From Nostoc sp. FACHB-152 (GTDB lineage Bacteria > Cyanobacteriota > Cyanobacteriia > Cyanobacteriales > Nostocaceae), in assembly GCF_014697475.1 (NCBI RefSeq), contig NZ_JACJRV010000013.1, positions 62,001 to 126,000 on the forward strand: a stretch of 64,000 nt of DNA, in the 5' to 3' direction. The notes below the pieces were generated by a model that saw only the letters and a list, made by a program, of their open reading frames with translations, made no database searches and was not told the DNA's origin. Shown piece by piece: positions 10,097-42,185 of the stretch (positions are counted from its first letter, which is position 1; each line of letters begins with the position of its first letter). The position numbers and the translations under genes were made by a program.

Positions 10097-10103
10097 AAAC
10101 TAT

Positions 10104-10595: not shown

Positions 10596-10674
10596 CTTTT
10601 CAAATCTCCTTGGTATTTTTAGTCTTTTTTACCTGGTAGCCAAATACTTTCGTATTGAGACTTTTTGACTGCTA

Positions 10675-11925: not shown

Positions 11926-11938
11926 GCCTCTTGATTTC

Positions 11939-12562: not shown

Positions 12563-12790
12563 TCAGAAAAAATAGATTTATGCACTGAAGTTGGAAAAGT
12601 TTTGGGTGAATATAATTCGCTACTATACAGGCAAATTTCGCCTGCACTGACCAACCAAAAATATTTCTAAAAAAACCTGGCAAAATATCCTGACAAAATG
12701 GAAAAAACAAAAGTAAAAAGACAAAAACTTATGTTTTGCCCTTTTACTTTTTATTGACAAATTCTAATTTTGAAAACTGAATTTTTAATT

Positions 12791-13564: not shown

Positions 13565-13574
13565 TGCTAAATAA

Positions 13575-13690
13575 GGGTGTAAGGAAAGAAGAAGGGAAAA
13601 GGATAAAGGTGAAAGGGAAAAGGGTAAGAACCAACTTTTGCCCCTTGCCCTTTTCCCCTTTCCCAAGGCGAAGCCTTTCCCCCCACACCC
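13575..13690. repeat. Complementary purine/pyrimidine repeat in the pecC-pecE spacer
   Basis: GGAAAAGGATAAAGG...GGGAAAAGGG is followed by CCCCTTGCCCTTTTCCCC, giving a long imperfect hairpin. Its composition resembles the repeat at 11793-11925 and the inserts in the 5-oxoprolinase gene. It extends the pecE frame artificially. Confidence 0.6.
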
Positions 13691-13732
13691 GCACACCCTG
13701 TCTAAGGAAGAATTTCTGACTTCTCCTAAGAT

Positions 13733-14569
13733 TTAAACTGGCGAAATTTTGACTATCTTACCGCCGCGCTTGTGAATTTCTTGGTATATGGTTGAGAGGC
13801 GTTCATAAGGCACAGTGTAAGTTTGGATGCTACGACGTACTGAAGCTTTGGAGCCGATTGTACCAGCGATCGCTTGAATAACGAACATCCGACTATCTCC
13901 CCGAAGAGCCGAACTAACCAAAGTTGGTGCGGCTGAGGCAAAGCTAGTACCAGCAGAAGTTGGTGGCATAATACCGTTGGGTAAATTTAATGCAACCTTC
14001 GTCCGCAAGCGAGAATTTTTACGTCCCATCTGAGCGTTATCACTGTTACCGCTACCGCGATAAAGCTCAAATATGCGATTAAATCCTACCGTTTTCATTC
14101 CTGGAATTGATTGAAATCCCCGGTGGTAAGGAACTACAGAATTCCCAAAAGCATTCTCGTATTCTGGGCTATAAATGTAAGATTCAATATCTGCATCGTA
14201 GCCACGAGCCGCATATAAATCTACATGGAAAGCAATCTCTGATTGGTCGTAAGGCGCACGTCCCAATAAGTGCTTATAGTTTAATTCGATAAAACGCACT
14301 TGGGAGTTTTTATAAAAAAAGCATTCTTTGTAAAAATCAGATTTGGCTAAAATCTCCACAAATTGCCGCACACTAATTTTGCCGTTACGCAATAAAGCTT
14401 CCGCACTAACAAATTTTTCGCTAGCATATAGTCCTTGACGACCAAAAATTTGTTGATAAGCAGCATAAAATACTTTTTGTAATTCGTCTTCGCTCCAATT
14501 TTGGCGTAATTCGACTTTAATGCCGATTTCATCTCTAATGCCTAGCCGTTCTGCGACTGAACTACTCAT
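13733..14569 (-). CDS. pecC: Phycoerythrocyanin-associated rod linker PecC
   Basis: A 278-aa rod linker with an N-terminal PBS_linker_poly domain ([53 protein letters not shown]) and a C-terminal CpcD-like domain ending [14 protein letters not shown]. It has the architecture of CpcC. Its place between pecA and pecE identifies it as the linker that joins phycoerythrocyanin hexamers at the rod tip to phycocyanin. Confidence 0.93.
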
Positions 14570-14831
14570 TTTGACAATCGCTCCTGTTTAAATTTTTGCT
14601 TGTAATAAATTTGGGTCTTTGGCAGTAGAAAAATGCAGCAATCAAAGTAGAAATTTATTCTACTTATAGCAATCCTGTTTGAAGTGTAAAAATTATCTTT
14701 ATGGTCGTTATTGTCAATTAGTAATTACAAAGGGCAAATGACTAATGACAACCAACAGAAAAATATTTCACAAATCATCTAGAATCACTTTATTGAGCAA
14801 TTATCTATTTCCAAAGACCCACAGTTTTGTC

Positions 14832-15320
14832 TTAGCTTAGTGCGTTAATTGCATAGTTGAGATAGGTGTTAGCTTCACCAGCAGCATCACCATTTAAACC
14901 ATGATTATCACGAACAAATTCGAGTGCAGCTACATACCAACTAGGAGACAAACCCAAAGCACTATTGAGTTCACTTAAACCAGCAACTACATATTCATCT
15001 AAAGGCCCTGTACCGCCAACAACACAGCAATAGCTGATGGTGCGGAGGTAGTGGTCAATATCCCGTACACATTTGGATTTACCTTCAGGAGTAGAGGCAT
15101 ATTGAGGGCCACTCATTTGAGTAGTATAGGGGAATTTTTGATAAACATGATTTGCAGCTGCTTCTGCCCATTTTTTGCCATTATTTGTAAATGCTTGAGC
15201 AGCTTCTAAACCTGCACGAGCGCGGCTGAACCGACCAAATACTGCTTGCATTTCGGTATTGCTGAGATAAGAACCGCGTAGATCAGCAGCAGAGATCGCT
15301 TCAGTTAAAGGTGTTTTCAT
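14832..15320 (-). CDS. pecA: Phycoerythrocyanin alpha subunit
   Basis: A 162-aa phycobiliprotein alpha subunit. The bilin-binding Cys84 lies in [15 protein letters not shown]. It differs from CpcA in the bilin pocket (for example [18 protein letters not shown]) and begins [19 protein letters not shown]. The presence of pecE/pecF beside it supports attachment of phycoviolobilin, which extends absorption into the green-yellow range. Phycoerythrocyanin forms the outermost rod disc in many heterocystous strains. Confidence 0.95.
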
Positions 15321-15393
15321 AATTCTCCTAATCTCCTCGATTTCTGACTAATTACTAACAACCAATTTGAGAAAAGTTTGCACAAAAAATTTA

Positions 15394-15912
15394 TTAAACA
15401 ACCGCACTAGCAGCGCGGTCAAAATAGCTGGCTAATTCAGAAATTAATTGGCTACAATCACCTTTACTAATACCATTGGGGTCATTAGCAATAGAAACTG
15501 CGGCATCTTTCATCTTTTGAATACCGGAAGCTACAGCATCACCAGGAGTACCAAGTGCTTGATAGGTTTCACGTAGTCCATTTAAGCAGCGATCGTCCAT
15601 GATGCTGGCATCACCTGCTAATACGGAATAGGTGACATAACGCAGAATAAATCCTAAGTCACGGATACAAGCAGCTTGATTACGGTTGTGGAAACAAGCA
15701 CCACCTGCATTAAAAATTTGAGGACGTTCAGCAACTAAAGCCCGATAGGAATTAGCCACAATAGAGGAAGCATTACTGGTTAGTCTGTTAACGATATCTA
15801 ACCGCTTATTGCTATCAGCAACTACTGCTGATAAAGCATTGATTTCATCACCACTTAGATATGAACCTTTTCTATCTGCTTGGTCAACTACTTTGGAAAA
15901 AGCGTCGCGCAT
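15394..15912 (-). CDS. pecB: Phycoerythrocyanin beta subunit
   Basis: A 172-aa beta subunit with bilin-binding Cys82 ([17 protein letters not shown]) and Cys153 ([13 protein letters not shown]). The segment [11 protein letters not shown], with a Cys-Phe-His in place of the CpcB NAYTN segment, is characteristic of PecB. It is the first gene of the pec operon, so the promoter lies in the 780 bp upstream. It pairs with PecA in rod-tip hexamers. Confidence 0.95.
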
Positions 15913-29370: not shown

Positions 29371-29375
29371 AGGAG
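29371..29375 (+). promoter_or_regulatory. Ribosome binding site of the precursor peptide gene
   Basis: AGGAG with a 7-nt spacer to the ATG at 29383. It supports this start and strong translation. Confidence 0.75.
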
Positions 29376-29382: not shown

Positions 29383-29643
29383 ATGGCTTCCATCAAAATC
29401 TCTGAACTACGTCCAGCCGGTTCTGAACTATTCCAAGATTCTGAAAGCTTCCTCAACGAACTCTCTGAAAATCGCGAAATGGATCAAGTTATGGGCGGTT
29501 TTACTAATATTAATGTTAATGCTTCTATAGGTGTTACACGTGACAATGACAACAATACCATTGGTAACACGATTGCTAACTCCATTGCTAACTCCGCTGG
29601 TAACAGTTTCGGTAACCAATTTACCCGACGCAACAGAAGATAA
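29383..29643 (+). CDS. Double-glycine-leader RiPP precursor peptide with N-[S/T]-x-[G/A] repeats
   Basis: An 86-aa peptide. Residues 1-39 form a leader (SELRPAGSELFQDSESFLNE ... MDQVMGG), ending in Gly38-Gly39, the cleavage mark for C39-peptidase exporters. The 47-residue core has 12 Asn, 9 Ser/Thr and no Cys. From Asn58 it runs as tetrads with Asn every fourth residue up to Asn78 (58, 62, 66, 70, 74, 78) and Ser/Thr after five of them; the DNA shows a matching 12-nt period at 29554-29616. It ends in a basic tail TRRNRR. Genes for an APH kinase and a HopA1 lyase follow, so the Ser/Thr are likely dehydrated. The product is unknown to me; it cannot be a lanthipeptide without Cys. Confidence 0.8.
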   Translation: MASIKISELRPAGSELFQDSESFLNELSENREMDQVMGGFTNINVNASIGVTRDNDNNTIGNTIANSIANSAGNSFGNQFTRRNRR

Positions 29644-29690
29644 TACCTTTCGTAACTAATACTATTTAGTTTCATTAAAGCCATAATACA

Positions 29691-29745
29691 ATGCTAACAA
29701 AAGATAGGTCTTGTTGACAAATTGCTACCTACGTTTTGTTAGCAT
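29691..29745 (+). terminator. Strong stem-loop after the precursor gene
   Basis: ATGCTAACAAAA (29691-29702) pairs perfectly with TTTTGTTAGCAT (29734-29745). After a 2x2 internal loop TAGGT (29705-29709) pairs with ACCTA (29727-29731). There is no U-tract, so it may be a processing or stability hairpin or an attenuator that keeps precursor mRNA above that of the modification genes. Confidence 0.65.
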
Positions 29746-30169
29746 AGATTATGGCATTCTTCACAAATTAACTTTCTAACCTTTTAAAGTCAATTGGTTG
29801 TTAATATTTGTTGTTGAGATGAGGCAGAGGGTAAAATATTTTATTTAGATTAATATTTGTTTACAATAATGAATACTTGCTTAGATAAATAAATATAGAT
29901 AAAATGCATTTTTTAACACTTATTTATTCTTTAATATTTCACTGCCGATGGACATCTTTAGTAGGATTATACCTTTGTATTTTTTTATAAAACTATATAT
30001 CTAGAAGTAATAGTTTAAAAAATATATTTAATGAAAATATATCTTAATGCTTGCTAATAATAAGCTTGCTCAAACTAATAAAAACAAAAAAGTATCTAAT
30101 AAAATAGCATAGTAAAAATAACATTTAATTTAAATAAACTGATTTTTTTATTACCTACTGTTTGAATAT
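29746..30169. other. A/T-rich spacer between precursor and kinase gene
   Basis: About 420 bp, very A/T-rich, with no ORF of note and no second precursor peptide found. It could contain a separate promoter for the modification genes. Confidence 0.5.
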
Positions 30170-31333
30170 ATGACTATGATTTTAAGTTCGGGAAATGTAG
30201 TAAAATATCTAAAATCATGTGGGATTATTGGATTAGACAACGAAGCTGATATAAAAATTGAACCGAAATTAGCTAAAAACTTTAACTTATTACTGACTTT
30301 CCCAAATGATCGTAAACTTCTAATCAAACAAGAAGCTCTCAATCAACAAGGAAAAACATTTGGAGAATTTCTGTGGGAATGGAAAATTCAAGAATTTGGA
30401 CAGAAATTCTCACAATTAAGTCAGATACGCGATTGGATATCAGAAGCAATTCATTTTAACCCAGATGATTCCATTATTATTTTTAATTACCTAGATAACT
30501 ATCGTGATGTGATAGCTTTCTATGGCAAGGAAAAAATTTTTCCCACAGAAATAGCATCTGCTATAGGCAAGGTTATAGCTAGTATTCATAGCTTAACTTT
30601 CCATCAGACAGATTATCAGGCTTTTTTTATTCAAGAGCAGGAGAGTGAATCCTCGGAAAATTTTCCCTATTTAAGTAACAATTTAGGACGAATCAGCCCA
30701 GAAATATTTGCTTCTGTTCCCGCTGAAGGTTTAAAATTCTTTGCCCTATATCAACGATATGATAGTTTAGGTCAAGCCATAGCCGAACTGGAAAATTCTT
30801 TAAAACCAAGTTGTTTAACACACAATGATCTGAAATTGAATAATATCCTTTTGGCTAATGATTGGGAACAAGGTATTGGCAAAAACACCATAAGATTGAT
30901 TGATTGGGAAAGGTGTAGTTGGGGAGATCCTGCTTTTGATTTAGGTACGCTCATTGGTAACTATCTACGCATTTGGTTGAGTAGTATGATTACCAACAAA
31001 ACGATGAGTATCGACGAATCCTTGCGGATGGCGACGAATCCATTGGAGGTAATGCAACCTTCTATTGCTAATTTAGTAATTGCATATTTAAATCATTTTC
31101 CAGAAATCTCAGAACATCGTCCTGACTTTTTACGGCGAGTCATCCAATGTGCTGGTTGGGATTTGATTAACGCTATTCAATCAACCCTGCAATACCAAAA
31201 AACTTTTGGTAATACGGGTATCTGTATGCTTCAAGTGGCTAAATCTTTATTATGCCGTCCAGAAGCATCAATTCCCACAGTTTTTGGTATGCAAGCATCA
31301 GAACTCACATCCGCCAGCTTATCTCCTGTTTAG
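30170..31333 (+). CDS. APH-fold kinase, likely kinase half of a split Ser/Thr dehydratase
   Basis: A 387-aa aminoglycoside-phosphotransferase-fold protein. The catalytic loop HNDLKLNN gives His218, Asp220 and Asn225; the metal-binding Asp245 is in IRLIDWERCSWGDPAFDLG; Lys53 (LLIKQE) is the likely ATP-binding lysine. All key residues are present, so it should be active. In class V lanthipeptide and thioamitide clusters an APH protein phosphorylates precursor Ser/Thr and a HopA1-type protein eliminates phosphate; the same two genes are neighbours here. The substrate role is inferred from context. Start choice: ATG 30170, with another ATG two codons on. An antibiotic-type phosphotransferase is unlikely. 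Confidence 0.8.
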   Translation: MTMILSSGNVVKYLKSCGIIGLDNEADIKIEPKLAKNFNLLLTFPNDRKLLIKQEALNQQGKTFGEFLWEWKIQEFGQKFSQLSQIRDWISEAIHFNPDDSIIIFNYLDNYRDVIAFYGKEKIFPTEIASAIGKVIASIHSLTFHQTDYQAFFIQEQESESSENFPYLSNNLGRISPEIFASVPAEGLKFFALYQRYDSLGQAIAELENSLKPSCLTHNDLKLNNILLANDWEQGIGKNTIRLIDWERCSWGDPAFDLGTLIGNYLRIWLSSMITNKTMSIDESLRMATNPLEVMQPSIANLVIAYLNHFPEISEHRPDFLRRVIQCAGWDLINAIQSTLQYQKTFGNTGICMLQVAKSLLCRPEASIPTVFGMQASELTSASLSPV

Positions 31334-31363
31334 AAGTTACACACAGGGTACACACAAGTAGAA

Positions 31364-31441
31364 TTACCCCCCTTAATTCCCCCTTGGAAAGGGGGGACAC
31401 CATAAAATCTAGTTCCCTCCCCTTTCCAAGGGGAGGGTTAG
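31364..31441. repeat. C/G-rich hairpin repeats between kinase and lyase genes
   Basis: Two hairpins: CCCCCTT-GGAAAGGGGG type at about 31379-31396 and CCCTCCCCTT-TCC-AAGGGGAGGG at about 31416-31438, followed by TTAGGGTGGGGT. They match the dispersed repeat at 3585-3630. Confidence 0.65.
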
Positions 31442-31553
31442 GGTGGGGTAATACCAACGCTTAAACCCAGATGAATAAACTGTTTTTGACTTTGTTACGA
31501 AAAACCTATATTTATCAAATTCTTCTTCTCCCTATCGTTAAAGGCAAGCACCT

Positions 31554-32654
31554 ATGCAAATACTAGATCCGCAGCCAATACAACTAACAGCTATTCCAGA
31601 GCCATTGCAGTATTCATTACAAGATATTGTTAATAAAATTCAGATTGAATCCAAATTTTGTATAAGCCACCCTGACTACAAACCTATAGAATTACCCTCT
31701 GAGGCAATTTCACGCTTTCAGCAATTGCCTTCAGATATACAAAATAAGTACTTAAACACCCAACTATATAGTTTTCTCTACGGCATTTATTACAATGGCT
31801 CGCTAAAACGTGTTTTAGCGCTAGATGAGGAAACAACAAATTTAGCAGTTAACCAAAATCTAGAAAATAACACCTTTCTAGGGGTAGATTTGGTGTTTTA
31901 CAATCGTCTCCATGAAAGCAACAAAGGTGAAGGCTATTTTAGCCCCGATTGGCTAGTGGTTAGAGAAGAACCAGATGGAGCTTTAGCAGTACATCAGGGC
32001 GGTTTGACTCTGCATATTGAGCGCAATAAACATTTACAACCATATGACCAATCTGTGACTGTGGGTAACTCAGTAGCCATCAAACTACCCAAAAATTTGG
32101 TGCAAAATGGCTTTTACATGGCTGTTAGCAATGCGGGTTCTTACAGTGGTGAAGATATAGTACGAGTCTATTTCAACTTAACTACAGATGGTGCAGTTGC
32201 AGTCATGGAAAGCTTAACTACTCAACTGAATGCTATCAATCTTCCTTTCGACTTTAAAGCGTTATACAACCCCTCAGATTATGAGCGTCATGACTCAGCA
32301 GTGCTTTACTTTGGCAAAAACAGCTATGAAGTTGTCCACCCAATACTAGAAAGGGTGTATACAGAACACCAATACCATTTTCAGGCAGAAGTACCTTTAT
32401 TTACTAAATTTATAGCACCAGGGTTGGCCATAGCTGAAGAACCAGACCAAAAATTTGGAGAAAAAGAAAGTTTTGGTACAAATCGCTGTCAAATTGTTGC
32501 CAATGGATTGATAGAAGCTTGGGAGCAAGAAGACAATTCACCAGAAGGAAGGATGGCATCGATTCTGCAACAATTCTCTTTGAGAGAAATTGATTTGCAA
32601 CGTCCTTACCTCAATGCCAAATCTGAAGATATTTATAAAAAGATAAAGTTATGA
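31554..32654 (+). CDS. HopA1-family protein, likely phospho-Ser/Thr lyase for RiPP dehydration
   Basis: A 366-aa HopA1-domain protein (domain about 130-320): GEGYFSPDWLVVREE, VRVYFNLTTDGAVAVM, INLPFDFKALYNP with Lys235 as a likely catalytic residue, and FGTNRCQIVANGLIEAW. The family was first seen in type III effectors and later as the elimination enzyme of class V lanthipeptides and thioamitides, related in fold to OspF/SpvC phosphothreonine lyases. Its stop overlaps the next start by 4 bp, so it is coupled to the AKR-like gene. It has no secretion signal and acts in the cytoplasm. Confidence 0.85.
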   Translation: MQILDPQPIQLTAIPEPLQYSLQDIVNKIQIESKFCISHPDYKPIELPSEAISRFQQLPSDIQNKYLNTQLYSFLYGIYYNGSLKRVLALDEETTNLAVNQNLENNTFLGVDLVFYNRLHESNKGEGYFSPDWLVVREEPDGALAVHQGGLTLHIERNKHLQPYDQSVTVGNSVAIKLPKNLVQNGFYMAVSNAGSYSGEDIVRVYFNLTTDGAVAVMESLTTQLNAINLPFDFKALYNPSDYERHDSAVLYFGKNSYEVVHPILERVYTEHQYHFQAEVPLFTKFIAPGLAIAEEPDQKFGEKESFGTNRCQIVANGLIEAWEQEDNSPEGRMASILQQFSLREIDLQRPYLNAKSEDIYKKIKL

Positions 32655-33691
32655 AAATTACTAATCTTACCCCTGATATTCCGAATCCTGATATTCAGCC
32701 TCAGTTAACTACCGCAGATGAACTAGCCATTGCTAATAGTAGATTTCCTCAATCAGATCTGCCTTTTTACCGCAAATTTGGGCGGACTAACTTAACTGTT
32801 AGTTGTTTAGGGCTGGGCGGTGGTGGCCCTATATCCAGTGAAGATACTCTTTACGCTTTTGACCAAGGCATTAACTTTTTTTTCTACTCTAGCGATTTAC
32901 ATCAATATTTTTATAGTTCCATGCGTCCTGCACTGCGCCAATTATGCGGAAGCGGCTCTTCAGTGCGTGAGAAGGTGGTTCTGGCAACTGTCAGTTACAT
33001 GATTAGAACTCCAGACACAGTCTTTACCTATCTATACGATCAGTTTATTGACCTAGGTATTGATTACGTTGATGTGTTTTTCTGGGGTTGGATTGACGAG
33101 CATAATCATCCTGCATTCGAGAAGTGTATTAGCGCCTCTGATGATATCCGTGGCCCTAATACACTGTGTCAACGCTATATAGAAAGAATGTTTGGTGTTT
33201 CAGAAAAACTGAAAAAAATGGGTGCGGTGCGCTACATAGGTGCTTCTTTTCACGACCACGACCTAGCAAAACAGTGGTTAAATAGCCCTTTATTGGATGT
33301 TGTTATGGTAAGGCACAATGTGGCACACCGTACAGCTCAAAGAAAGGTTTTCCCTTATTTGGATGTTAACGATCCTTATCGGCCTGGTATTGTTACTTTT
33401 AAGTCATCAGGTATGTTAAATGCTCTTTGGGAACCGCCTGTTAGTCTACCAGATGGATGCTGGCAACCTTCAGTCCCAGATTTATATCGCTATTCTTTAA
33501 GCCAAAATTCTGTTGATGTTGCTTTAGCAGGTTGGCGAACTCGTGAAGAGGTCGATGCTGCAATTCAAGGTGTGCAGAAGGGCAAACTTACTCCTGAAGA
33601 AATCGACTACCTCAACCTATACGGCGATTTACATCGCAACCGAGTGAAACCTCACGAAATTCCCACCGAACGTTTGCTTGTCAACAGATAG
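32651..33691 (+). CDS. Aldo/keto reductase-fold protein lacking the catalytic tetrad
   Basis: A 346-aa AKR-superfamily protein, recognisable from FGRTNLTVSCLGLGGGGP, DLGIDYVDVFF, GAVRYIGASFHDHD and the C-terminal VDVALAGWRTREEVDAAI. The residues expected for catalysis are replaced: INFFF instead of INFFD (Phe78 for Asp), VVLATV instead of the ATK motif (Val114 for Lys), and DVFFWGW instead of D-x-x-x-x-H-W (Gly146 for His). The NADP-binding end is less altered. It is translationally coupled to the HopA1 gene. It might be a scaffold, a leader-binding partner or an unusual redox enzyme acting on dehydro-residues; this is not decidable from sequence. Confidence 0.8.
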   Translation: MKITNLTPDIPNPDIQPQLTTADELAIANSRFPQSDLPFYRKFGRTNLTVSCLGLGGGGPISSEDTLYAFDQGINFFFYSSDLHQYFYSSMRPALRQLCGSGSSVREKVVLATVSYMIRTPDTVFTYLYDQFIDLGIDYVDVFFWGWIDEHNHPAFEKCISASDDIRGPNTLCQRYIERMFGVSEKLKKMGAVRYIGASFHDHDLAKQWLNSPLLDVVMVRHNVAHRTAQRKVFPYLDVNDPYRPGIVTFKSSGMLNALWEPPVSLPDGCWQPSVPDLYRYSLSQNSVDVALAGWRTREEVDAAIQGVQKGKLTPEEIDYLNLYGDLHRNRVKPHEIPTERLLVNR

Positions 33692-33718
33692 AAATAACAA
33701 TCTTAATATCAGTAATTT

Positions 33719-34486
33719 ATGACAGAACAATTAGAACAAACTCTACCTCCAAAAGTTTCACCCAATGAACCCGTAAATGTCCAGTCTGCAACCGATGCAG
33801 AAATTTTGGAATATTTGCGTCGTTCTGCTAAGTTTGCGGAAATCGCTGTGGCTGCTGAACGTGAGGCATTCGTTATAGCGAACTGTAAACAGTTGGGAAT
33901 TGAAATATCTGAGGATGAATGGCAAGCTGCTGGAGATGCTTTTCGCTTAGAACGCAAATTATGGGGAAATGCAGAAACTCTTGCATGGTTGGAGGAACAG
34001 CGCATTAGTGTTGAAGAGTGGTCGGAAGGTATTAAAGTAGCACTGTTAGAGAAAAAGCTCAAAGAACATCTATTTGGTGCGCTTGTGGATGGTGCTTATG
34101 TATCTAACCGTGACAACTACAGACGGGTGGCACTGTCGCAAATTCTGGTGACTGACCTTGCAACTGCTTGGAAAATCGTACAATTGCTACGCGAAGGACA
34201 AGCTTCTTTCTGCGCGTTGGCTTTGGAACATTCCAAGGGTAAGCAGTCTCAAGAAAATGGCGGCTTTGTCGGAATTCAGTATTTAGTAGAACTGATACCA
34301 GAAATTGCTGAACCTCTGACCGAAGCTAAAGAAGGCGAAATTGTTGGCCCTGTGCAATCAAAAATAGGGTATCACGTTCTGAGAGTGGAAAAGTGGTTCC
34401 CTATAGAATTAAATCAAGCCGTGAGAGAGCAAATTATGGACTCATTGTTCCAACAGTGGTTGCAAAATTTGCAGAATTCTAACTAA
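33719..34486 (+). CDS. Parvulin (PpiC/SurA-type) peptidyl-prolyl isomerase
   Basis: A 255-aa protein with an alpha-helical N-terminal half and a rotamase domain at about 130-228: ALSQILVTDLATAWKIVQLL, FCALALEHSKGKQSQENGGF and GPVQSKIGYHVLRVEKW. No signal peptide is present, so it is cytoplasmic. Such isomerases are frequent beside cyanobacterial Gly-Gly peptide and HlyD/C39 exporter genes. It follows the AKR-like gene by 27 bp and belongs to the same transcription unit. It may hold or fold the precursor before export. Confidence 0.88.
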   Translation: MTEQLEQTLPPKVSPNEPVNVQSATDAEILEYLRRSAKFAEIAVAAEREAFVIANCKQLGIEISEDEWQAAGDAFRLERKLWGNAETLAWLEEQRISVEEWSEGIKVALLEKKLKEHLFGALVDGAYVSNRDNYRRVALSQILVTDLATAWKIVQLLREGQASFCALALEHSKGKQSQENGGFVGIQYLVELIPEIAEPLTEAKEGEIVGPVQSKIGYHVLRVEKWFPIELNQAVREQIMDSLFQQWLQNLQNSN

Positions 34487-34521
34487 TAGGCTGAATACAA
34501 CGTGAGTTCGACGGATATAAA

Positions 34522-34610
34522 GAACCCCTCTCCAAACCTCTCCCCGAAGCGGAGAGAGGCTTTGAAACCCCCATTCCCTCGTAGGGAAGGGGGCTAGGGG
34601 GTTAGGTTTT
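34522..34610. repeat. Paired hairpin repeats
   Basis: CCTCTC-CCCGAAGCGGA-GAGAGG (about 34536-34559) is followed by CCCCATTCCCT-CGT-AGGGAAGGGGG (about 34567-34592). Both are intergenic hairpins of the kind seen at 3585 and 31364. They probably end the modification-gene transcript. Confidence 0.6.
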
Positions 34611-34737
34611 TCAGATTTTGATGTTAACAATAATACTTTTCAAACAACCTCTCACCGCATTTCTCCTCCTTGCATCTTGCTTGCTGTTTTACGGGTAGCA
34701 AGTTGAAACAATCAACATAGATTATCAGGGGAAAATC

Positions 34738-35490
34738 ATGAGCTTAATTTTAGTGGCTACTAATGGTAACGACACCATTAACGGTACAAATAATAGCGAT
34801 GTCATCGAAGCTTTAGGTGGTAACGACATCATTAGAGGTCTAGAAGGTAGTGACGTTATCGATGGTAATGATGGTAATGACCGTATTAATGCTGGTTCTG
34901 GCAATGATGTGTTTACAGGTGGTCGTGGCGTAGATACGCTCACTGGCGGAGGAGGGAGAGATACTTTCCAGTTCTCTGATGATCCTTTCTCTGGGGGTTC
35001 TCCAACGCGAGCCGCTAACGGTATTTCAGTTTTGAATAAGCCTGATATTCTGACCGACTACCAAATTGGTACAGATAAGTTAGAGTTTCAAAAGCAGCAG
35101 TTAGATATTGATAAATTCAGCTTCCAAAAAGGAAATAGCAGTAATTTATCTGGTAATAATAATGTACTGGTGCTGCTCAACCCATTTCCAAATGCTGCTG
35201 CGGCTGCTAGAGCGATCGCCAATAATAATGCAATTACTAGCGATCGCGGTTTATTTGTCTATTTCAACACTACTTTAGGCTTTGCCAGAGTTGTCTTTTC
35301 CCAAGATCTCAGTGACGGCGGTACAATCAGCGTTCTTGGCAATTTAACCAATCAAACAAATCTTGCTAATCTGAGGCAGTTCTCCTCTGGTGACCTTGTA
35401 TTGACTGGTAATAACAATGTAGTGTCTGGTTCTAGTGGTAATTTTTCATTGCCCGATTTAGGATCATTGGGAATCGATTTAGGGTTTTAA
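34738..35490 (+). CDS. RTX-type calcium-binding protein
   Basis: A 250-aa protein with glycine-rich RTX nonapeptide repeats (GGxGxDxUx) at about residues 26-80: NGNDTINGTNNSDVIEALGG, then GNDIIRGLEGSDVIDG, GNDGNDRINAGSGNDVF, GGRGVDTLTGGGGRDTF. The C-terminal part (DILTDYQIGTDKLEF ... GTISVLGNLT) is the usual cyanobacterial RTX tail. Such proteins are secreted by type I systems without a cleaved signal and fold on binding Ca2+ outside. An HlyD/ABC pair lies 1.2 kb away on the other strand. Its part in the peptide pathway is unclear. Confidence 0.85.
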   Translation: MSLILVATNGNDTINGTNNSDVIEALGGNDIIRGLEGSDVIDGNDGNDRINAGSGNDVFTGGRGVDTLTGGGGRDTFQFSDDPFSGGSPTRAANGISVLNKPDILTDYQIGTDKLEFQKQQLDIDKFSFQKGNSSNLSGNNNVLVLLNPFPNAAAAARAIANNNAITSDRGLFVYFNTTLGFARVVFSQDLSDGGTISVLGNLTNQTNLANLRQFSSGDLVLTGNNNVVSGSSGNFSLPDLGSLGIDLGF

Positions 35491-35565
35491 TTTAACCTCA
35501 AGAGGTTTGTATAGGCGCACAAGATTTACGCCCGTACCTGTTCACAAGCTTAAGTCCTGTTGATT

Positions 35566-36357
35566 TCACGCTGCTTGTGATGATTGAGACTTGAGCTTTT
35601 CTGTTGAATGATTGCTATTTACATCAAGTTGCACCACAATTTCAAATTGTTCAAGTTGTTGTTTTAACCAAGCCGTAAATAAATCTCCTAAAATCGTACC
35701 GCGCAGTTGTTCATCTAATTGAGGTTTGATAATTTCTTCTACCGAAATTAAATGCGCTCCTTTGGCAGTAATTATAGGCTTGAGAAGTTGTGGCGGATTA
35801 GCAGCAAATACTGCTGCTGCGATTTCTGGATGGAAGTCATGACGGCGTTTAATACCTTGGTATCCTCCGGCGCGACGAATCTCCGGATTTTGGATATATT
35901 GACGGGCAATTTCTTGAAAATTAATTTCGCCTTCTTGCAAGGCATAAAACAGTTCTAAAGCTAATCCTTCATCATCTAAAATTACTTCATAAATGACTGC
36001 ACTAGTATAGTTAATTTGGTTGTCATAAAAAAACGGCTCTACTTTTTCTCCAAATAGATGAGTTGCTAATTTATTTGAAATCAAATTAATTTGGGCTAAT
36101 TCTTCAAAGTCATCAACCGACAGATAATATTTTTCTAGCCATGCCCAAGTATCTTCTGCTTTGAGAAGTTGGTTGGCTAAACGCAAGCTATCTGCTGCTT
36201 GTTGAAGTTCTTCTGGGTTAATTTTAATTCCAGCTTCTAAGGCTTTATCGGCAATAATTTTGTGAGTTGCGATCGCTTCCAACAAATTAGGAATTTGACA
36301 CGTAATTTTGATGTGATGCAAGATATCTTCGTTGGAAAATGTTAATATTTTAGCCAC
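35566..36357 (-). CDS. Second parvulin-type peptidyl-prolyl isomerase
   Basis: A 263-aa parvulin-family protein related to the one at 33719: a helical N-terminal half, then a rotamase-like domain (VIYEVILDDEGLALELFYAL, GEINFQEIARQYIQNPEIRR, AGGYQGIKRRHDF). The catalytic-fold region is more divergent, so isomerase activity is less certain. It is convergent with the RTX gene and separated by about 290 bp from the HlyD gene upstream of it. Confidence 0.75.
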   Translation of the reverse strand: MAKILTFSNEDILHHIKITCQIPNLLEAIATHKIIADKALEAGIKINPEELQQAADSLRLANQLLKAEDTWAWLEKYYLSVDDFEELAQINLISNKLATHLFGEKVEPFFYDNQINYTSAVIYEVILDDEGLALELFYALQEGEINFQEIARQYIQNPEIRRAGGYQGIKRRHDFHPEIAAAVFAANPPQLLKPIITAKGAHLISVEEIIKPQLDEQLRGTILGDLFTAWLKQQLEQFEIVVQLDVNSNHSTEKLKSQSSQAA

Positions 36358-36651
36358 AGTGACATTCCTCTGATTAATTCCTACAAAGTGAATTTTTTAT
36401 ACTCTTTTTTTGTAAATACACCCTTAATGATTGCGTCCTAACTTACAGCAGGAAACAGAAAATAGGGAACAATTGTGAATGTCTCTTAGTATATAGATTT
36501 GTTATTAAATTTTTTACATCATTCACTCGCAATCTGCTGTAATTATTTTGCCATGTTAATTAATCTGTATTTATTGGCAAAAACAAATATTTATGACTAC
36601 AATAATTATTGCAGATTTTCAATAAAATGCAATTAAATAATTATAAACAAA

Positions 36652-38211
36652 TTACAGTTCTAAACCACCTTTCTGCAACTTCTTAAATGGGTCTAAAACA
36701 AAATCAATAACTCGACGTTGACGAACAATTACTTCTGCTGTTGCTGTCTGTCCTGGTAATAAGTCAATACGTTTATTTCCTGATTCTATATATGGATGAT
36801 TTAGAGTAATTTCTAACTCATAAATCTCTATTTTTCCTTGGTTAGTTTCCTGAATTTTGGAATCAGGTGAAATCCAGTTAACATGACCTTTCACAACTCC
36901 ATAATCTTGGAATGGATAAGCATCAAACTTGATTTTTACGGGCATTCCTTTCTTTAAAAAACCGCTTTCTTGACTGGGCATCTGTGCTTTGAGTACGTAG
37001 GCAGTATTCTTCGGTGCAATTTGAGCAATCATTTGACCTGGCTGCACCACTGACCCAGGTTTAGAGATAGGTAATGTAAAAACAGTGCCATCAACAGGCG
37101 ATCGCAATATTCTTTGACCTAACTGAAGCTTTAGGGATATTATCTGACTGCGACTTTGCATGATTTCCGAGCGCAGTACAGCAATTTGTGTTTGTAAATC
37201 TTTGAGTTGTTCCTGAGATTTGAGAATAGTTAATTTTCCAGCTTGCTGTAAACTCTTATAACTATTTTGTACCTCTTGTAGTCGGAGTTTTGCTTGTTGA
37301 ATCTCAGACTCAAGCTGAGTAATTGTGGTTTGATAGCGGTTTTGTTCTTCAGCTAAACGCAATTTTGCTTGTTTAATATCAGATGTGGCTTGTTCATAAA
37401 GTCGTTTGCTTTCTTGTTGTTCTTTTTTGAGTTGATCAACTTGGTTTTCAGAAACCGCACCAGCTTTAACAATTTGGTTAAAGCGTTCGACTTGTCGGGA
37501 ATCTATAGTTAAACGACTTTGAGCCGAATTTTGATCATTTTGAGCGCTATTAATCTGCTGCTGGGCCTGATTGACTAATGCCTGTTTTTCTAATTTTTGT
37601 AAATTATAAGTACTCTGTTTTGCATCAAGATTTTGCTGTGCTTGGTTAAGTTGGGCAAGCTTTTCTAACTCTTGGGATTGGTTTTGTTGCTCTTGAACAC
37701 GAATTGAAAGTTCTAATTGGTTTTTGAGTAAATTCAGTTGCATGAGGCGATTTTGTTGCCCTTCTAACTTCGCTTGCACCTGTTGGAGTTCTGTTTTCAA
37801 AACACCAGTTTCCAGTTCAACTAAAACCTGACCTGCTGCTACAGTTTGGCCTTCTTTGACTTTCACCGCAGTCACATTACCACTAACTGCACTGTCTATT
37901 CTTTGGGCTGCCCCTTTGGGTTCTATACGCCCTCTTGCATTTCCAGTTTCATCAACTTTAGAAAGCATAGTCCAAGGTAAAACGAGTACCGCAAAGCCGA
38001 TCAAAAAATACAGTAAAGAGTGCGCCCAACGCTTCGGTAAAGCATCTAATAGTTCTTCTGTACTGTGCGACCAATCATTAGTATCATTTGCTGTTTCTAG
38101 ATTTTTAACCTCTATAGTACCTTTTACAGCTTCAGGTTGATAGTAGTTTTTAAGTGCATCTTCATCAGATGTAGTTAAGGCTGTTGAAGAATTCCAAGAA
38201 GGATCAGGCAT
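36652..38211 (-). CDS. HlyD-family membrane fusion protein
   Basis: A 519-aa type I secretion adaptor. One transmembrane helix (LLYFLIGFAVLVLPWTML, about residues 66-83) is followed by the first half of the lipoyl-like domain (GAAQRIDSAVSGNVTAVKVK, EGQTVAAGQVLVELE), a long coiled coil (about 135-355), the second lipoyl half (RSPVDGTVFTLPISKPGSVV) and a beta-barrel domain (LPGQTATAEVIVRQRR). It connects the ABC exporter just upstream (84 bp) to an outer-membrane TolC-like channel that is not in this window. Confidence 0.94.
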   Translation of the reverse strand: MPDPSWNSSTALTTSDEDALKNYYQPEAVKGTIEVKNLETANDTNDWSHSTEELLDALPKRWAHSLLYFLIGFAVLVLPWTMLSKVDETGNARGRIEPKGAAQRIDSAVSGNVTAVKVKEGQTVAAGQVLVELETGVLKTELQQVQAKLEGQQNRLMQLNLLKNQLELSIRVQEQQNQSQELEKLAQLNQAQQNLDAKQSTYNLQKLEKQALVNQAQQQINSAQNDQNSAQSRLTIDSRQVERFNQIVKAGAVSENQVDQLKKEQQESKRLYEQATSDIKQAKLRLAEEQNRYQTTITQLESEIQQAKLRLQEVQNSYKSLQQAGKLTILKSQEQLKDLQTQIAVLRSEIMQSRSQIISLKLQLGQRILRSPVDGTVFTLPISKPGSVVQPGQMIAQIAPKNTAYVLKAQMPSQESGFLKKGMPVKIKFDAYPFQDYGVVKGHVNWISPDSKIQETNQGKIEIYELEITLNHPYIESGNKRIDLLPGQTATAEVIVRQRRVIDFVLDPFKKLQKGGLEL

Positions 38212-38294
38212 AGCTTTTTACCCGTATTGAGGAGAGAGGGAAGGGCGACTAGGAAGTAGCAAAAAAACTGGCTTTTGGCTCTTGGCAAAGCTAT

Positions 38295-41200
38295 TTAAGA
38301 CTGAACTTGTGCCAATTGTTGCTGATTGAGGTAGAAGTAATGACCTTTTTTAGCAATTAATTGATCGTGAGTACCGCTTTCAACCAATACACCACGATCC
38401 AAAACCAAAATTAGATCAGCATTACGTACAGTAGAGAGTCGGTGAGCAATAATCAGGCTGGTACGCCCTTTAAGTATGGTTTTGAGGTTTTGCTGAATAA
38501 TACGTTCAGATTCCGAGTCTAGGTGACTGGTAGCTTCATCTAAAAGTAATAAACGAGGATTACCCAACAAAGCACGAGCTATAGCTAATCTTTGGCGTTG
38601 TCCACCAGATAACATCCCGCCACCTTCACCGATTTCAGTTTCGTAACCCTTTGGTAATTGTTTGATAAATTCGTCTGCTCCTGCCAATTCTGCCACTTCC
38701 ATAATTTCGGCTAAAGTGGCTTCTGGGTGAGCAATGCTGATATTTTCCCGAATCGTACCGCCAAACAAAAAAGTATCTTGATCCACCACACCAATTTGGC
38801 TACGGAGCGATCGCAGCGAAATACTAGTAACATCTTGACCATCAATTAAGACTTTGCCATCTGTTGCTGGGTATAAACCTAATACTAATTTAGAGAGGGT
38901 GGTTTTACCGGAACCACTACGTCCAACAACGGCCACTGTTTGCTCAGGCTTAATTTCAAAGCTGAGATTTTCGAGGACATTAATATCGCTTTCAGGATGA
39001 TAGCGAAAAGTAACTTGCTCAAAGCGAATATGACCGCGTAACCTTGGCAATGATTGTCGGGGTTGATGTTCCAAATCTTCTTCTGGTTCGGCTTCTAAAA
39101 CATCATTAATTCGTTCTATAGAAACTATTACTTCCTGTAATTGATTCCACAATACTATTAGTCGCTGGAAAGGATTAATGATGTTACCTAACAACATATT
39201 GAAAGCGACTAATTGCCCAATTGTCAGTTGATTTTGAATCACCAACGACGCACCAAACCACAGCAACCCTGTAGTTATCAAAGTTTGGATAGTAGAGCTA
39301 AAAACTTGTAGTTGGTTACTAATTACCTCAGCTTTAAAAGTTTTTTTAATCAAATTATTTAAGAGTTCTTCCCAACGCCAGCGTACTGTCTGTTCAATGG
39401 CCATTGAACGAATTGAGCTAATCCCTGTCAGACTCTGAATCAAATAACTATTTTCTTGGGCTAAGGCATTAAATACTTCTTGGGAAATTCGGCGTAAAAA
39501 AGGCGTTGCAATCAGTGCTAGTAACAAGTATGGTGGCACAATTGTTAAGGATAGCAGTGCCATTTGCCAACTGTACCAAAACATCAATCCTACATAAACA
39601 AATACTGTCAGCAAATCCAAGCCAATAGACAGTGATTCTCCCGTAAGGAAGCGTTGAATTTTTTGATTTTCTTGGACACGGGAAATAATATCGCCAACAT
39701 AACGCGATTCAAAGTAAGACAAGGGCAAGCGGAAGGTGTGTTTAATAAAACCCACCATCAGTGATACCCCAATGCGATTGGCAGTATGATCCAATAAATA
39801 TTGCCTTAGCCCGTTTACAGCAACGCTGAACAAGCCAAAAATTAGCAATCCGAAACCAACGGTATTCAAAGTCAGAGTACTACCCTGGACAATCACTCTA
39901 TCTAAAAGTAATTGTGTGAATAGCGGCGTTACTAGCCCCAATATCTGAATCACCACAGAAGCTATAAATACTTCTAGCAGTACTGTAGTGTGCGGTTTGA
40001 CTAAATCAAAAAATTGCCAAAATCCTGAACTTGCTTCTTCGGCTTCTTTTAAGAGGCTGGTAGGTTGTAACAATAAAGCATAACCAGTCCAGCCTGCTTT
40101 AAATTCTGCAATCTTCAGGTTGCGTTGCCCAATGGCGGGATCGCCGACAATCACTTGTTTTTTATTAATTTCGTAGACTACGACGTAATGTTTGCCTTCC
40201 CAGTGAGCGATCGCTGGCAATGGTTGTTGTGCTAATTTATCAAGACTTGCTTTCACCGGACGAGTAGTAAAACCAACGCTTTCTGCGGCTAGTGTTAAAC
40301 CTCGTAGTGACGAGCCATCGCGGTTAACGTTAGCTAACTCCCGCAAGCGGTTGACACTCAATCGCTTACCCCAATAGCGACTAATCATCACCAAACAAGC
40401 AGCCCCACAGTCAGAAGCACTTTGTTGTTGGTAAAAAGGGTAGCGTTTGCTGATGTGTCCCCACCAATGCCCTAATCTGACTTTCGGGCTGGGAAAGTAA
40501 GCACGTCGTTTTTTTTGTGGTTGTGGTAGCTGAATTTGAGAAGGAAAGGAAATAATGTTGCTGTTGGTTTTGGTAACTACTACTACAGGTTTTTCTGCTA
40601 TGGGGGCTTGAGTTGCTTGTGAATCAACCAATTCTGCCAACTGTCCCCAATGTAGCAGTGCTTTTTGCCAATCACTATGCTTGAGACTGTAAGCGATGGT
40701 GGGTTGTGACACCTGCCAATTGCCCGGTTTCATAGCAGAGATGTCACCAGGGGTTAGTTTGCTACCATCAGAATGCTGTAATTCTCCTTGACGCACTATC
40801 CATAGCCGACTTTCTGCGGCTAGTTGGGGTGGTAGGGAACCAATGTCTAGATGCTGTCGTGAGAAATAAGCCAAAGCTTTGAGCATATCTTCAACAGATG
40901 TATTGCCTTTGCCGATTGAGTTCTGACGACACAACATGAGTAAATCCCAAAGTTCTGCACGGGCGAAAAGGCGATCGCGAATGCTGGGATATTTGCCCAT
41001 CAAAGTTTGCAACGTTTCTTGTGAGAGATAACTCAGCTTTAAGTTCAGAGAAGATCTGGCTGAGTATGGTTGCAAATTTGCTTCGGGAAACAACGTTAGT
41101 TCACCAAATGACGCACCTGGCGAGAGGGTAGTAATTAAGTTCTGCTCACTATCCAACAATCGGACTTTACCCGCTAACACTAAATAAATTCCCGCTTTTG

Positions 41201-41351
41201 CTGCTGTTGCTTGCCAAAACAGTTGTGCTGTCGGCGGTTCCACAATTTCCATCGCCCCCAAGCAACTTTGCAGTTCTCTATCTTCTAGCTTTTCACCCAA
41301 GACAACGCTTAACTGTTCACCAAGCTGTGCTTGTGAAAATACTGATGGCAT
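38295..41351 (-). CDS. Peptidase-containing ABC exporter with cyclic-nucleotide-binding domains
   Basis: A 1,018-aa exporter. Residues about 40-130 form a cyclic-nucleotide-binding-like domain (SPGASFGELTLFPEANLQPY), with a second degenerate one at about 170-230. The C39 peptidase domain (about 308-430) has catalytic Cys315 (SASDCGAACLV), His388 (HWEGKHYVVVYE) and Asp404 (GDPA). Then come a six-helix membrane domain (about 455-750) and an ATPase with Walker A VGRSGSGKTT, signature LSGGQRQRLAIARAL and Walker B LLLLDEATSHLD. It should cleave leaders after Gly-Gly and export the peptide. With the HlyD gene it forms a type I system, and it is the natural exporter for the precursor at 29383. Confidence 0.95.
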   Translation of the reverse strand: MPSVFSQAQLGEQLSVVLGEKLEDRELQSCLGAMEIVEPPTAQLFWQATAAKAGIYLVLAGKVRLLDSEQNLITTLSPGASFGELTLFPEANLQPYSARSSLNLKLSYLSQETLQTLMGKYPSIRDRLFARAELWDLLMLCRQNSIGKGNTSVEDMLKALAYFSRQHLDIGSLPPQLAAESRLWIVRQGELQHSDGSKLTPGDISAMKPGNWQVSQPTIAYSLKHSDWQKALLHWGQLAELVDSQATQAPIAEKPVVVVTKTNSNIISFPSQIQLPQPQKKRRAYFPSPKVRLGHWWGHISKRYPFYQQQSASDCGAACLVMISRYWGKRLSVNRLRELANVNRDGSSLRGLTLAAESVGFTTRPVKASLDKLAQQPLPAIAHWEGKHYVVVYEINKKQVIVGDPAIGQRNLKIAEFKAGWTGYALLLQPTSLLKEAEEASSGFWQFFDLVKPHTTVLLEVFIASVVIQILGLVTPLFTQLLLDRVIVQGSTLTLNTVGFGLLIFGLFSVAVNGLRQYLLDHTANRIGVSLMVGFIKHTFRLPLSYFESRYVGDIISRVQENQKIQRFLTGESLSIGLDLLTVFVYVGLMFWYSWQMALLSLTIVPPYLLLALIATPFLRRISQEVFNALAQENSYLIQSLTGISSIRSMAIEQTVRWRWEELLNNLIKKTFKAEVISNQLQVFSSTIQTLITTGLLWFGASLVIQNQLTIGQLVAFNMLLGNIINPFQRLIVLWNQLQEVIVSIERINDVLEAEPEEDLEHQPRQSLPRLRGHIRFEQVTFRYHPESDINVLENLSFEIKPEQTVAVVGRSGSGKTTLSKLVLGLYPATDGKVLIDGQDVTSISLRSLRSQIGVVDQDTFLFGGTIRENISIAHPEATLAEIMEVAELAGADEFIKQLPKGYETEIGEGGGMLSGGQRQRLAIARALLGNPRLLLLDEATSHLDSESERIIQQNLKTILKGRTSLIIAHRLSTVRNADLILVLDRGVLVESGTHDQLIAKKGHYFYLNQQQLAQVQS

Positions 41352-41372
41352 TTCCTTATCTCCAAGACTGAA

Positions 41373-41975
41373 TTAGTGATTGGTCTGTGCCAAATTGAAT
41401 GACCAAAGGAAATTAGACTGGCCATTGTTAGATTGCAAGTCACAAATTCTAATGCCAGCATCCTTTAAAGATTCAGTTGCTTGTTGTTTTGTGGATTTTT
41501 GTTTAGTAGATAGCCCCATTTGTTTGAGTAGCCGATTAATATGGCGATCGCTAATTTCAATTCCCAATTCCTGAGCCAAATGTTTGCTCAACCATTGAGA
41601 TGTCCAGCTACTAAATGCATAACCATAATCACGTGGACTACGGCTCACCAATTCTTTTAACCTTTCAAGATATTGATGATTCACAGTCTTGGGTCTACCA
41701 ATAGGCCGCTCATTCCATTTGTGCGCTAGACCAGCCTCTGCTACCGCAATCCAGTATCGTGCCATCTCTTGAGAACAACTTAATATTTTGCAAATATGAG
41801 ATTGGGGTATACCCTTATCTGCCAGCAACATAATTTCAATACGACGACGATATTCTGGCTGTAACTCTGCTTGCAAATTCTTGAGTAAAACCTTTCGTTG
41901 AAAAGGTGTCAAAAACTTGCTTTCATGCGTAGAAGCATTATCAAAACTCTCGTCTTGGCTGGAATAGTACGACAT
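41373..41975 (-). CDS. IS630-like HTH protein without transposase catalytic domain, putative regulator
   Basis: A 200-aa DNA-binding protein. I start at MSYYSSQDESFDNA (41975); a longer frame adds 12 unlikely residues. It contains two helix-turn-helix units like the N-terminus of IS630/Tc1-type transposases: RRIEIMLLADKGIPQSHICK, ILSCSQEMARYWI, then the linker RPIGRPKTV and a second wing (SRSPRDYGYAFSSWTSQWLS, ISDRHINRLLKQMGLS). The DDE catalytic part is absent and the protein ends naturally 22 bp before the ABC gene, so it is probably a domesticated regulator of the exporter operon. Confidence 0.75.
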   Translation of the reverse strand: MSYYSSQDESFDNASTHESKFLTPFQRKVLLKNLQAELQPEYRRRIEIMLLADKGIPQSHICKILSCSQEMARYWIAVAEAGLAHKWNERPIGRPKTVNHQYLERLKELVSRSPRDYGYAFSSWTSQWLSKHLAQELGIEISDRHINRLLKQMGLSTKQKSTKQQATESLKDAGIRICDLQSNNGQSNFLWSFNLAQTNH

Positions 41976-41997
41976 AATAACTTTTGCCTTGCGGGTG

Positions 41998-42185
41998 TTC
42001 CAAAAAATCAAATGCCCAGCCCTTCAGGTTCAGCAATTGCACGCCACTTGCTAGAACGGGGGGAACCCCCGCAACTGGCTCCTCAACTCAGGACAACCGA
42101 CGACACTGGCTTCAACGTGGGTAACCAGCGCAGCACTCCGTCTCCCCAATGCACTGCTTCACCGGATCAGGGATATTGTAGGTAA
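41998..42185. repeat. G/C-rich dispersed-repeat-like segment
   Basis: This stretch is much more G/C-rich than its surroundings, with GGGGGGAACCCCC at about 42058-42070 as a near palindrome. It looks like a piece of a dispersed Nostoc-type repeat upstream of the HTH/exporter operon. No convincing protein is encoded. Confidence 0.4.

What the first reader, a model, noticed from the sequence alone, without database searches (positions are those of the whole stretch)
29383..41975. Candidate new RiPP pathway: split APH/HopA1 dehydratase with a Cys-free Asn-repeat precursor and C39 exporter
A Gly-Gly-leader peptide is followed by an APH-fold kinase, a HopA1 lyase, an AKR-fold protein and a parvulin, then (opposite strand) a parvulin, HlyD, a CNBD-C39-ABC exporter and an HTH protein. 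APH plus HopA1 is the known Ser/Thr dehydration pair of class V lanthipeptides (LxmK/LxmY) and thioamitides (TvaC/TvaD). Here the core has no Cys, so rings by Cys addition are impossible and the product class would be different: a linear, multiply dehydrated, Asn-rich peptide, perhaps reduced or otherwise rearranged.
Basis: partly seen in the sequence, partly recalled or inferred. Interest (0 to 1): 0.88.

Follow-up and report, generated by a model that had tools for sequence, protein, structure and literature searches.

The report
Cysteine-free dehydrated peptide pathway in cyanobacteria
A cyanobacterial gene cluster makes small secreted peptides whose serines and threonines are probably dehydrated but which mostly have no cysteine to form rings; it belongs to a large family already noticed in print, but its odd reductase-like protein, which follows dehydrating enzymes of two unrelated kinds, may be an undescribed modifier of such residues.

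Summary
The locus is real and nearly as described. The Gly-Gly precursor (29383-29643) has no Cys. The HopA1 protein models onto the LxmKY lexapeptide dehydratase and keeps its four catalytic positions; the APH keeps its kinase motifs. The leader family tracks HopA1: 34 of 34 leader-bearing relatives and 41 of 42 in a 291-genome class sample. Of 320 distinct precursors 248 have Cys-free cores. Dehydration is thus well supported, though chemically untested. By its features the family is not new: PMC8153245 'Family 1A', PMC9486802 'type-B' (Cys-containing ORFs only).

What I did not find in print is the AKR-fold protein. It lacks all four AKR catalytic residues, yet its 35 copies in sampled genomes all sit beside a Ser/Thr dehydratase: 29 HopA1, 6 LanM. 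Its tree needs at least two partner switches. AKR-linked LanMs often lost the first cyclase zinc Cys (8 of 12; controls 3 of 28). Best reading: it tailors dehydro-residues. The 'HTH protein' is a transposase remnant.

The parts
29371..29375 (+). AGGAG ribosome-binding site, 7 bases before the precursor ATG
   Evidence: read in the sequence
29383..29643 (+). precursor peptide, 86 aa: leader 29383-29499 ending in Gly-Gly, core 29500-29640 with N-[ST]-x-[AG] repeats and no Cys
   Evidence: leader family alignment A1, genome searches
29680..29755 (+). strong RNA hairpin between the precursor gene and the enzyme genes, probably a transcript end or attenuator (role inferred)
   Evidence: -32.8 kcal/mol, z -6.3; no Rfam match at gathering score
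30170..31333 (+). APH-fold kinase, LxmK-like
   Evidence: HxD..N and DxE motifs conserved
31554..32654 (+). HopA1/LxmY-like phospho-Ser/Thr lyase
32651..33691 (+). AKR-fold protein without the AKR catalytic tetrad; proposed modifier of dehydro-residues
33719..34486 (+). parvulin-like protein (PPIase; TIGR04500-related, below its cut-off), travels with the AKR gene
34738..35490 (+). RTX calcium-binding repeat protein; strong matches (over 200 bits) only in L050, L082, L146 and L154 besides this locus
35566..36357 (-). second parvulin-like protein, beside the exporter
36652..38211 (-). HlyD membrane-fusion protein
38295..41351 (-). CNBD-C39 peptidase-ABC exporter; C39 motif DCGAACL read in the sequence
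41373..42011 (-). IS630-type transposase N-terminal remnant; not judged part of the system

Best explanation
A RiPP pathway. The precursor's conserved leader is recognised by an APH kinase and a HopA1 lyase that work together as an LxmKY-type dehydratase: the kinase phosphorylates Ser/Thr of the core and the lyase eliminates phosphate to give dehydroalanine/dehydrobutyrine. With no Cys in the core and no cyclase gene found beside it, lanthionine rings do not form. The AKR-fold protein then acts on the dehydrated residues (most likely stereoselective reduction to D-Ala/D-Abu, or another non-ring conversion), the two parvulin-like proteins hold or fold the peptide, and the CNBD-C39-ABC exporter cuts after Gly-Gly and exports the product with HlyD. 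Shown here by computation: family, fold, conserved residues, linkage. Inferred: leader recognition, dehydration itself, what the AKR-fold protein does, roles of the parvulins, the product.
For: HopA1 model best matches the LxmKY complex (9dk1/2/3, E 6e-17 to 1e-16, TM 0.76-0.77 by target); R204, K235, R245, Y252 lie where CaoY R187, K219, R229, Y236 lie (PMC9486802 section 6; alignment to 9dk1; spacing agrees exactly for three, one residue off for R204) and are invariant in the 35 AKR-locus HopA1s aligned (the window's and 34 of the 55 listed). K235 is Lys in 48 of 49 HopA1s of stretches with a precursor but 6 of 41 of stretches without (Fisher p 1e-17). Leader genomes hold HopA1: 34 of 34 among 60 relatives, against 0 leaders in 19 HopA1-less genomes, and 41 of 42 among 291 class genomes. 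APH and HopA1 are fused in one protein in 8 fetched loci. Cores Cys-free in 248 of 320; Ser/Thr 21% in AKR-locus cores and seldom adjacent (121 seen, 259 expected, z -11). AKR-fold protein: 35 of 35 genome copies beside a dehydratase, 29 HopA1 and 6 LanM; in the named loci LanM stands in 7 of 7 AKR loci without HopA1 and 1 of 59 with it; tree needs 3 partner switches, at least 2 forced by well-supported branches; AKR-linked LanMs lost the first zinc Cys in 8 of 12 against 3 of 28 controls.
Against: No product or activity is known. 72 of 320 cores do have Cys, so rings are not excluded family-wide. None of the four AKR catalytic residues is kept in 42 of 42 cyanobacterial rows, which speaks against ordinary AKR redox chemistry; the protein could be a binding or scaffold partner. 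Many HopA1/APH clusters with the same leader lack the AKR gene, and their cores avoid adjacent Ser/Thr only weakly (65 seen, 77 expected, z -1.9). One leader-bearing genome (G177) has no HopA1 match at E 1e-6 (an APH stands beside its leaders). PMC8153245 reports no conserved Ser/Thr in Family 1A cores, so not every member need be heavily dehydrated. AKR-LanM loci number only 9, and at 3 of them the single LanM keeps intact zinc motifs (L193, L197, L239). Six precursor-less HopA1s keep Lys (all six without the thioesterase neighbour). In the APH-HopA1 fusions the residues at the R204 (8 of 8) and Y252 (7 of 8) positions differ.
Confidence: 0.68

Rival explanations
1. The AKR-fold protein is not an enzyme on dehydro-residues but a chaperone or leader-binding scaffold that presents the peptide to the dehydratase or exporter.
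For: None of the four AKR catalytic residues is kept in 42 of 42 rows; it travels with a parvulin gene (57 of 66 loci).
Against: It is found with two unrelated dehydratases and unrelated leader kinds, which a dedicated scaffold would not easily serve; its own set of residues (D82, H84, V114, Y116, H201, N223) is invariant in all 42 cyanobacterial rows, as expected of an active site (though some of them also of a fold).
Confidence: 0.3
2. Ordinary class V lanthipeptide clusters: the Cys-containing cores are the real substrates and Cys-free ones are decayed or serve as decoys.
For: 72 of 320 cores carry Cys; PMC9486802 took Cys-containing cyanobacterial 'type-B' ORFs as putative LanA (section 7).
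Against: Cys is 1.1-1.2% of residues in the dereplicated cores and 248 of 320 cores have none, including arrays of near-identical copies; only one APH-family gene and no cyclase gene among the ten ORFs scanned here; a HopA1-LanC fusion beside a Cys-containing Gly-Gly peptide (L228) shows what a ring-forming version may look like.
Confidence: 0.12
3. Unmodified double-glycine bacteriocins exported by a group I/II cyanobacterial bacteriocin cluster; the APH/HopA1 pair has another, unrelated job.
For: Exporter, HlyD and SurA-like proteins match the long-type clusters of PMC3140520; solitary APH-HopA1 copies without precursors exist.
Against: Near-perfect genome-level co-occurrence of leader and HopA1; the solitary copies have mostly lost the catalytic Lys while precursor-linked ones keep it.
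Confidence: 0.08

Closest known systems
Family 1A HopA1-associated precursor peptides (PMC8153245, 2021; section 16 and passages read)
   Same: Cyanobacteria, conserved leader with double glycine, highly variable cores, several precursors per cluster, HopA1+phosphotransferase pair
   Different: The parts I read do not single out Cys-free cores, the AKR-fold protein, the lysine-less solitary pair or APH-HopA1 fusions; supplementary logos were not held, so that this locus is in Family 1A is my inference from the described features
'Type-B' putative class V LanA ORFs (PMC9486802, 2022; sections 6 and 7 and passages read)
   Same: Cyanobacterial short ORFs beside LanK/LanY homologues
   Different: Collected only ORFs containing Cys, so the Cys-free majority was outside that set; its figure of sequences was not held
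Class V lanthipeptides (lexapeptide LxmKY, cacaoidin CaoK/CaoY)
   Same: Same two enzyme families; HopA1 fold and catalytic positions match LxmY/CaoY
   Different: Core without Cys, no second APH-family gene and no F420 reductase or flavin Cys decarboxylase among the ten ORFs scanned; C39 exporter and parvulins instead
Thioamitides (TvaC/TvaD, TsaC/TsaD) and kintamdin (KinD/KinC); passages of PMC8153245 and PMC9415263 seen
   Same: APH + HopA1-like dehydration
   Different: No YcaO/TfuA and no Cys decarboxylase among the ten ORFs scanned; no AviCys possible without Cys
Cyanobacterial group II bacteriocin clusters (PMC3140520, 2011; sections 5 and 8 and passages read)
   Same: Long-type C39-ABC exporter with CAP_ED domain, HlyD, SurA-like rotamase, Gly-Gly precursors
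   Different: The text I read names no phosphotransferase (term search), HopA1 or AKR; no M16 peptidase here
SprOR-type oxidoreductase associated with dehydroalanine reduction (PMC7794033 section 9 read)
   Same: Also inferred from co-occurrence with both canonical lanthipeptide clusters and the HopA1/APH pair
   Different: Different kind of protein (luciferase-like); the protein here is AKR-fold without the AKR tetrad

Membership tests
Class V lanthipeptide | LanK (APH) gene | tested here: met
   NF038156 E 2e-26 (92.9 bits, curated cut-off 315 not reached), PF01636 6e-12; kinase motifs conserved
Class V lanthipeptide | LanY (HopA1) gene with catalytic residues | tested here: met
Class V lanthipeptide | Cys in core for (methyl)lanthionine or AviCys | tested here: not met
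   0 Cys in the 86-aa precursor
Class V lanthipeptide | second APH-family protein (CaoX/LxmX) in the cluster | tested here: not met
   one APH-family ORF among the ten scanned; feature taken from PMC9486802 passages
Class V lanthipeptide | lanthionine-containing product | not testable with these tools
   needs mass spectrometry or NMR
Family 1A of PMC8153245 | cyanobacterial, Gly-Gly leader strongly conserved, core variable, beside HopA1+APH, several precursors per cluster | tested here: met
   (relatives; this window itself shows a single precursor)
Family 1A of PMC8153245 | sequence match to the published logo or network | not testable with these tools
   supplement not held
Group II bacteriocin cluster (PMC3140520) | long-type C39-ABC with CAP_ED, HlyD, SurA | tested here: met
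Group II bacteriocin cluster | M16 peptidase gene (called characteristic in a passage of PMC4558948) | tested here: not met
   none among the ten ORFs scanned
Aldo-keto reductase superfamily (AKR-fold protein) | TIM-barrel AKR fold | tested here: met
   AlphaFold2 pLDDT 89; the 50 best PDB matches listed are AKR-fold proteins by title, TM 0.53-0.69
Aldo-keto reductase superfamily (AKR-fold protein) | catalytic tetrad Asp-Tyr-Lys-His | tested here: not met
   F78, L83 (F in one row), V114, G146 in 42 cyanobacterial rows; Asp/Tyr/Lys in the 3 ordinary AKR rows, His in 2 of them as aligned; tetrad positions recalled from general AKR knowledge

The most novel reading that the evidence does not exclude
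The AKR-fold protein founds a new kind of RiPP tailoring enzyme that acts on dehydroalanine/dehydrobutyrine with an active site rebuilt after loss of the AKR tetrad, and that was recruited independently by two unrelated dehydratases: LxmKY-type pairs with DSESFL-leader peptides, and LanMs whose cyclase zinc site has often decayed, with NHLP- or Nif11-like leader peptides. Together they form a 'dehydrate and convert, do not cyclise' branch of lanthipeptide-like biosynthesis. If the conversion is stereoselective reduction, Ser/Thr-rich cores with Asn repeats or alternating Ser/Thr would become linear peptides with many D-residues, perhaps helical channel formers.
Probability: 0.4. Interest if true: 0.8.

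Novelty: new variant of a known kind. Interest (0 to 1): 0.6.

Why it matters
At least one survey of class V lanthipeptide precursors (PMC9486802) collected only Cys-containing ORFs; that filter would discard about three quarters of this family (248 of 320 cores without Cys). The AKR-fold gene gives a handle on Cys-free dehydrated peptides and a candidate new chemistry on dehydro-residues, testable by a simple co-expression. The Lys-to-Gln split between precursor-linked and solitary HopA1 copies suggests a sequence rule for telling RiPP lyases from a second, unexplained function.

Tried and rejected
Novelty of the whole pathway: rejected after reading PMC8153245 section 16 and PMC9486802 section 7. 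HTH protein as regulator: rejected (IS630). Alternating Ser/Thr (every second residue) as a general rule of AKR-locus cores: rejected (lag 2: 261 seen, 252 expected, z 0.8), although single loci such as L158 show it; lags 3-6 are enriched instead (z 2.6 to 6.5). Neighbourhoods of five of the distant AKR relatives (L212-L216): first residues of ORFs read by eye only, no RiPP sign seen, no family search made. Rfam match for the hairpin: none at gathering score. Papers naming an AKR in lanthipeptide or HopA1 clusters: none with the term in the listings (7 of 8 listed; 20 of 32 listed; 'keto reductase' with 'lanthipeptide') listed 5 papers, none that looked relevant by title, none opened. All searches cover an open-access PubMed Central library only. 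The N-[ST]-x-[AG]/N-x-N-[ST] repeat is real in AKR-locus cores (26 of 212 distinct cores with two or more, shuffles 1.0 on average and 4 at most) and absent in the 103 others, but I have no function for it.

Corrections made on checking: 14 (not 15) relatives in alignment A2; 13 of 14 (my notebook says 12 of 13) Cys-free picks in L200; about half, not most, of the HopA1 stretches carry a precursor. None changes the odds.
Full report
What is there. The window lies in a cyanobacterial genome (own assembly 8.6 Mb; nearest named AKR relatives are Nostoc strains). The order is precursor, hairpin, APH, HopA1, AKR, parvulin, RTX on the + strand, then parvulin, HlyD, CNBD-C39-ABC on the - strand. A 76-base hairpin of -32.8 kcal/mol (z -6.3) separates the precursor gene from the enzymes.

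Is it a family. Around the HopA1 hits of 60 relatives I hold 90 stretches (L035-L124, one the window itself and one a duplicate) and compared them with the window's proteins. 49 of the 90 HopA1 copies lie in a stretch with at least one short ORF like the precursor, 139 ORFs in all, with the leader MAxIKISELxPAGSELFxDSESFLNEL...GG. A profile of 40 leaders found the family in 34 of 60 relatives, all 34 with HopA1, and in 0 of 19 HopA1-less genomes. In an even class sample of 291 genomes (a few shared with the 60), 42 have the leader, 55 have HopA1, and 41 of the 42 leader genomes have HopA1; the exception, G177, has an APH and a parvulin beside its leaders on a short contig. Some precursors lie away from any HopA1, alone or in small arrays (20 such places fetched, some on short contigs; no HopA1 match in the 20), suggesting that the enzymes also serve precursors at a distance.

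Dehydratase. The window's HopA1 protein folds (pLDDT 84) like LxmY in the LxmKY complex. The four residues that matter in CaoY (PMC9486802) are present. A control inside the data: HopA1 copies in stretches with a precursor keep the catalytic Lys (48 of 49), copies in stretches without mostly do not (Lys in 6 of 41; 33 have Gln). Of the 41, 31 stand directly before a thioesterase gene, and none of those 31 has Lys; none of the 49 has that neighbour. In eight fetched loci APH and HopA1 are one protein of 772-826 aa (of three scanned with Pfam both domains are found in L224 and L231, in L223 only HopA1 reached the threshold used while the APH profile built here scored 469 bits). In these fusions the Lys is kept in 7 of 8, but the residues at the R204 (8 of 8) and Y252 (7 of 8) positions differ, so the mapping is less sure there.

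Cores. Of 320 distinct precursors from L035-L124 and L145-L222, 248 have Cys-free cores (157 of 216 in AKR loci, 91 of 104 elsewhere). Cys is 1.1-1.2% of core residues after dereplication. In AKR loci Ser+Thr make up 21% and neighbouring Ser/Thr are strongly avoided (z -11); elsewhere 17% and weakly (z -1.9). The window's Asn repeat recurs in close relatives as N-x-N-T units.

AKR-fold protein. It is highly conserved (14 relatives 61-89% identical) and AKR-like in fold but lacks the tetrad. A scan of named genomes gave 66 cyanobacterial loci (the tool kept the 80 best of 127, 78 distinct; two loci are from one strain): 59 with HopA1, 57 with both APH and HopA1, 56 with a leader precursor. The 7 without HopA1 all have a LanM gene on the fetched stretch, within about 10 kb; of the 59 with HopA1 one (L171) has LanM; of the 90 HopA1 stretches two do. 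By a motif of my own I picked 33 Gly-Gly precursors at these LanM loci (none in L197), 30 of them with no Cys in the core; one was confirmed as NHLP-type by a family model, the others, including Nif11-like ones in L200, were judged by eye. In the tree the LanM label needs three changes, at least two forced by well-supported branches. Twelve distinct LanMs at nine loci: the first zinc-ligand Cys is lost in eight; among 28 scoreable control LanMs from the same 60 genomes (30 of 44 listed match rows fetched) it is lost in three (Fisher p 7e-4). At L193, where the motifs are intact, both precursors seen have a Cys; at L201 one LanM is intact and one is not, with 9 of 9 picks Cys-free. Rows are related, so p-values here and for the Lys/Gln split are rough. 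The zinc-ligand and AKR-tetrad positions are recalled knowledge applied to alignments made here.

Known or new. The enzyme pair, its chemistry and a cyanobacterial peptide family with these features are in print (PMC8153245 section 16; PMC9486802 sections 6-7; PMC7794033 section 9). HopA1-LanC fusions are also reported in PMC8153245; L228 is one, with WCHG and LCHG motifs intact and a Cys-containing Gly-Gly peptide nearby, a natural contrast to the Cys-free loci. I found no paper on the AKR-fold protein, the zinc-less LanMs with it, the lysine-less solitary pair or the APH-HopA1 fusions with Arg/Ser-rich precursors; for the last three I made no dedicated search beyond.

Verdict. Real, well-conserved RiPP system; dehydration very likely; Cys-free nature general; pathway class already noticed; the AKR-fold protein is the part worth pursuing.

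Noticed in passing
L106 (own genome, G000:C103) and others among L035-L124, 31 HopA1 copies in all: Solitary APH-HopA1 pair without precursor nearby, directly before a hotdog-type thioesterase gene (name by eye), in which the lyase Lys is replaced (29 Gln, 1 Glu, 1 His of 31) while the kinase motifs mostly stay: a second, unexplained function.
   Followed up: partly
L223-L227, L229-L231: APH-HopA1 fusion proteins of 772-826 aa; in five of the eight loci (L223, L224, L225, L226, L231), and in the unfused locus L233, the leader-family precursor has an Arg/Ser-rich, Cys-free core.
   Followed up: partly
L228:6413-10507: HopA1-LanC fusion beside a separate APH and a Gly-Gly peptide with Cys-containing core; LanC zinc motifs intact. 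Fusions of this kind are mentioned in PMC8153245.
   Followed up: partly
L167, L200, L201, L202, L240, L244: LanM synthetases with a lost zinc-ligand Cys in the cyclase domain near Gly-Gly precursors that are nearly all Cys-free.
   Followed up: partly
L125-L144: Leader-family precursors away from any HopA1 gene, singly or in arrays, as if modified at a distance.
   Followed up: partly
window 31360-31460: Short inverted C/G-rich repeat of the interspersed kind between APH and HopA1 genes (seen).
   Followed up: no
window 3811-15912: Genes that look like phycobilisome linkers, phycobiliproteins and lyases, read by eye from the ORF list.
   Followed up: no
L158:7005-8769: Precursor cores with nearly alternating Thr/Ser and hydrophobic residues, e.g. 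runs of Ile-Thr.
   Followed up: partly
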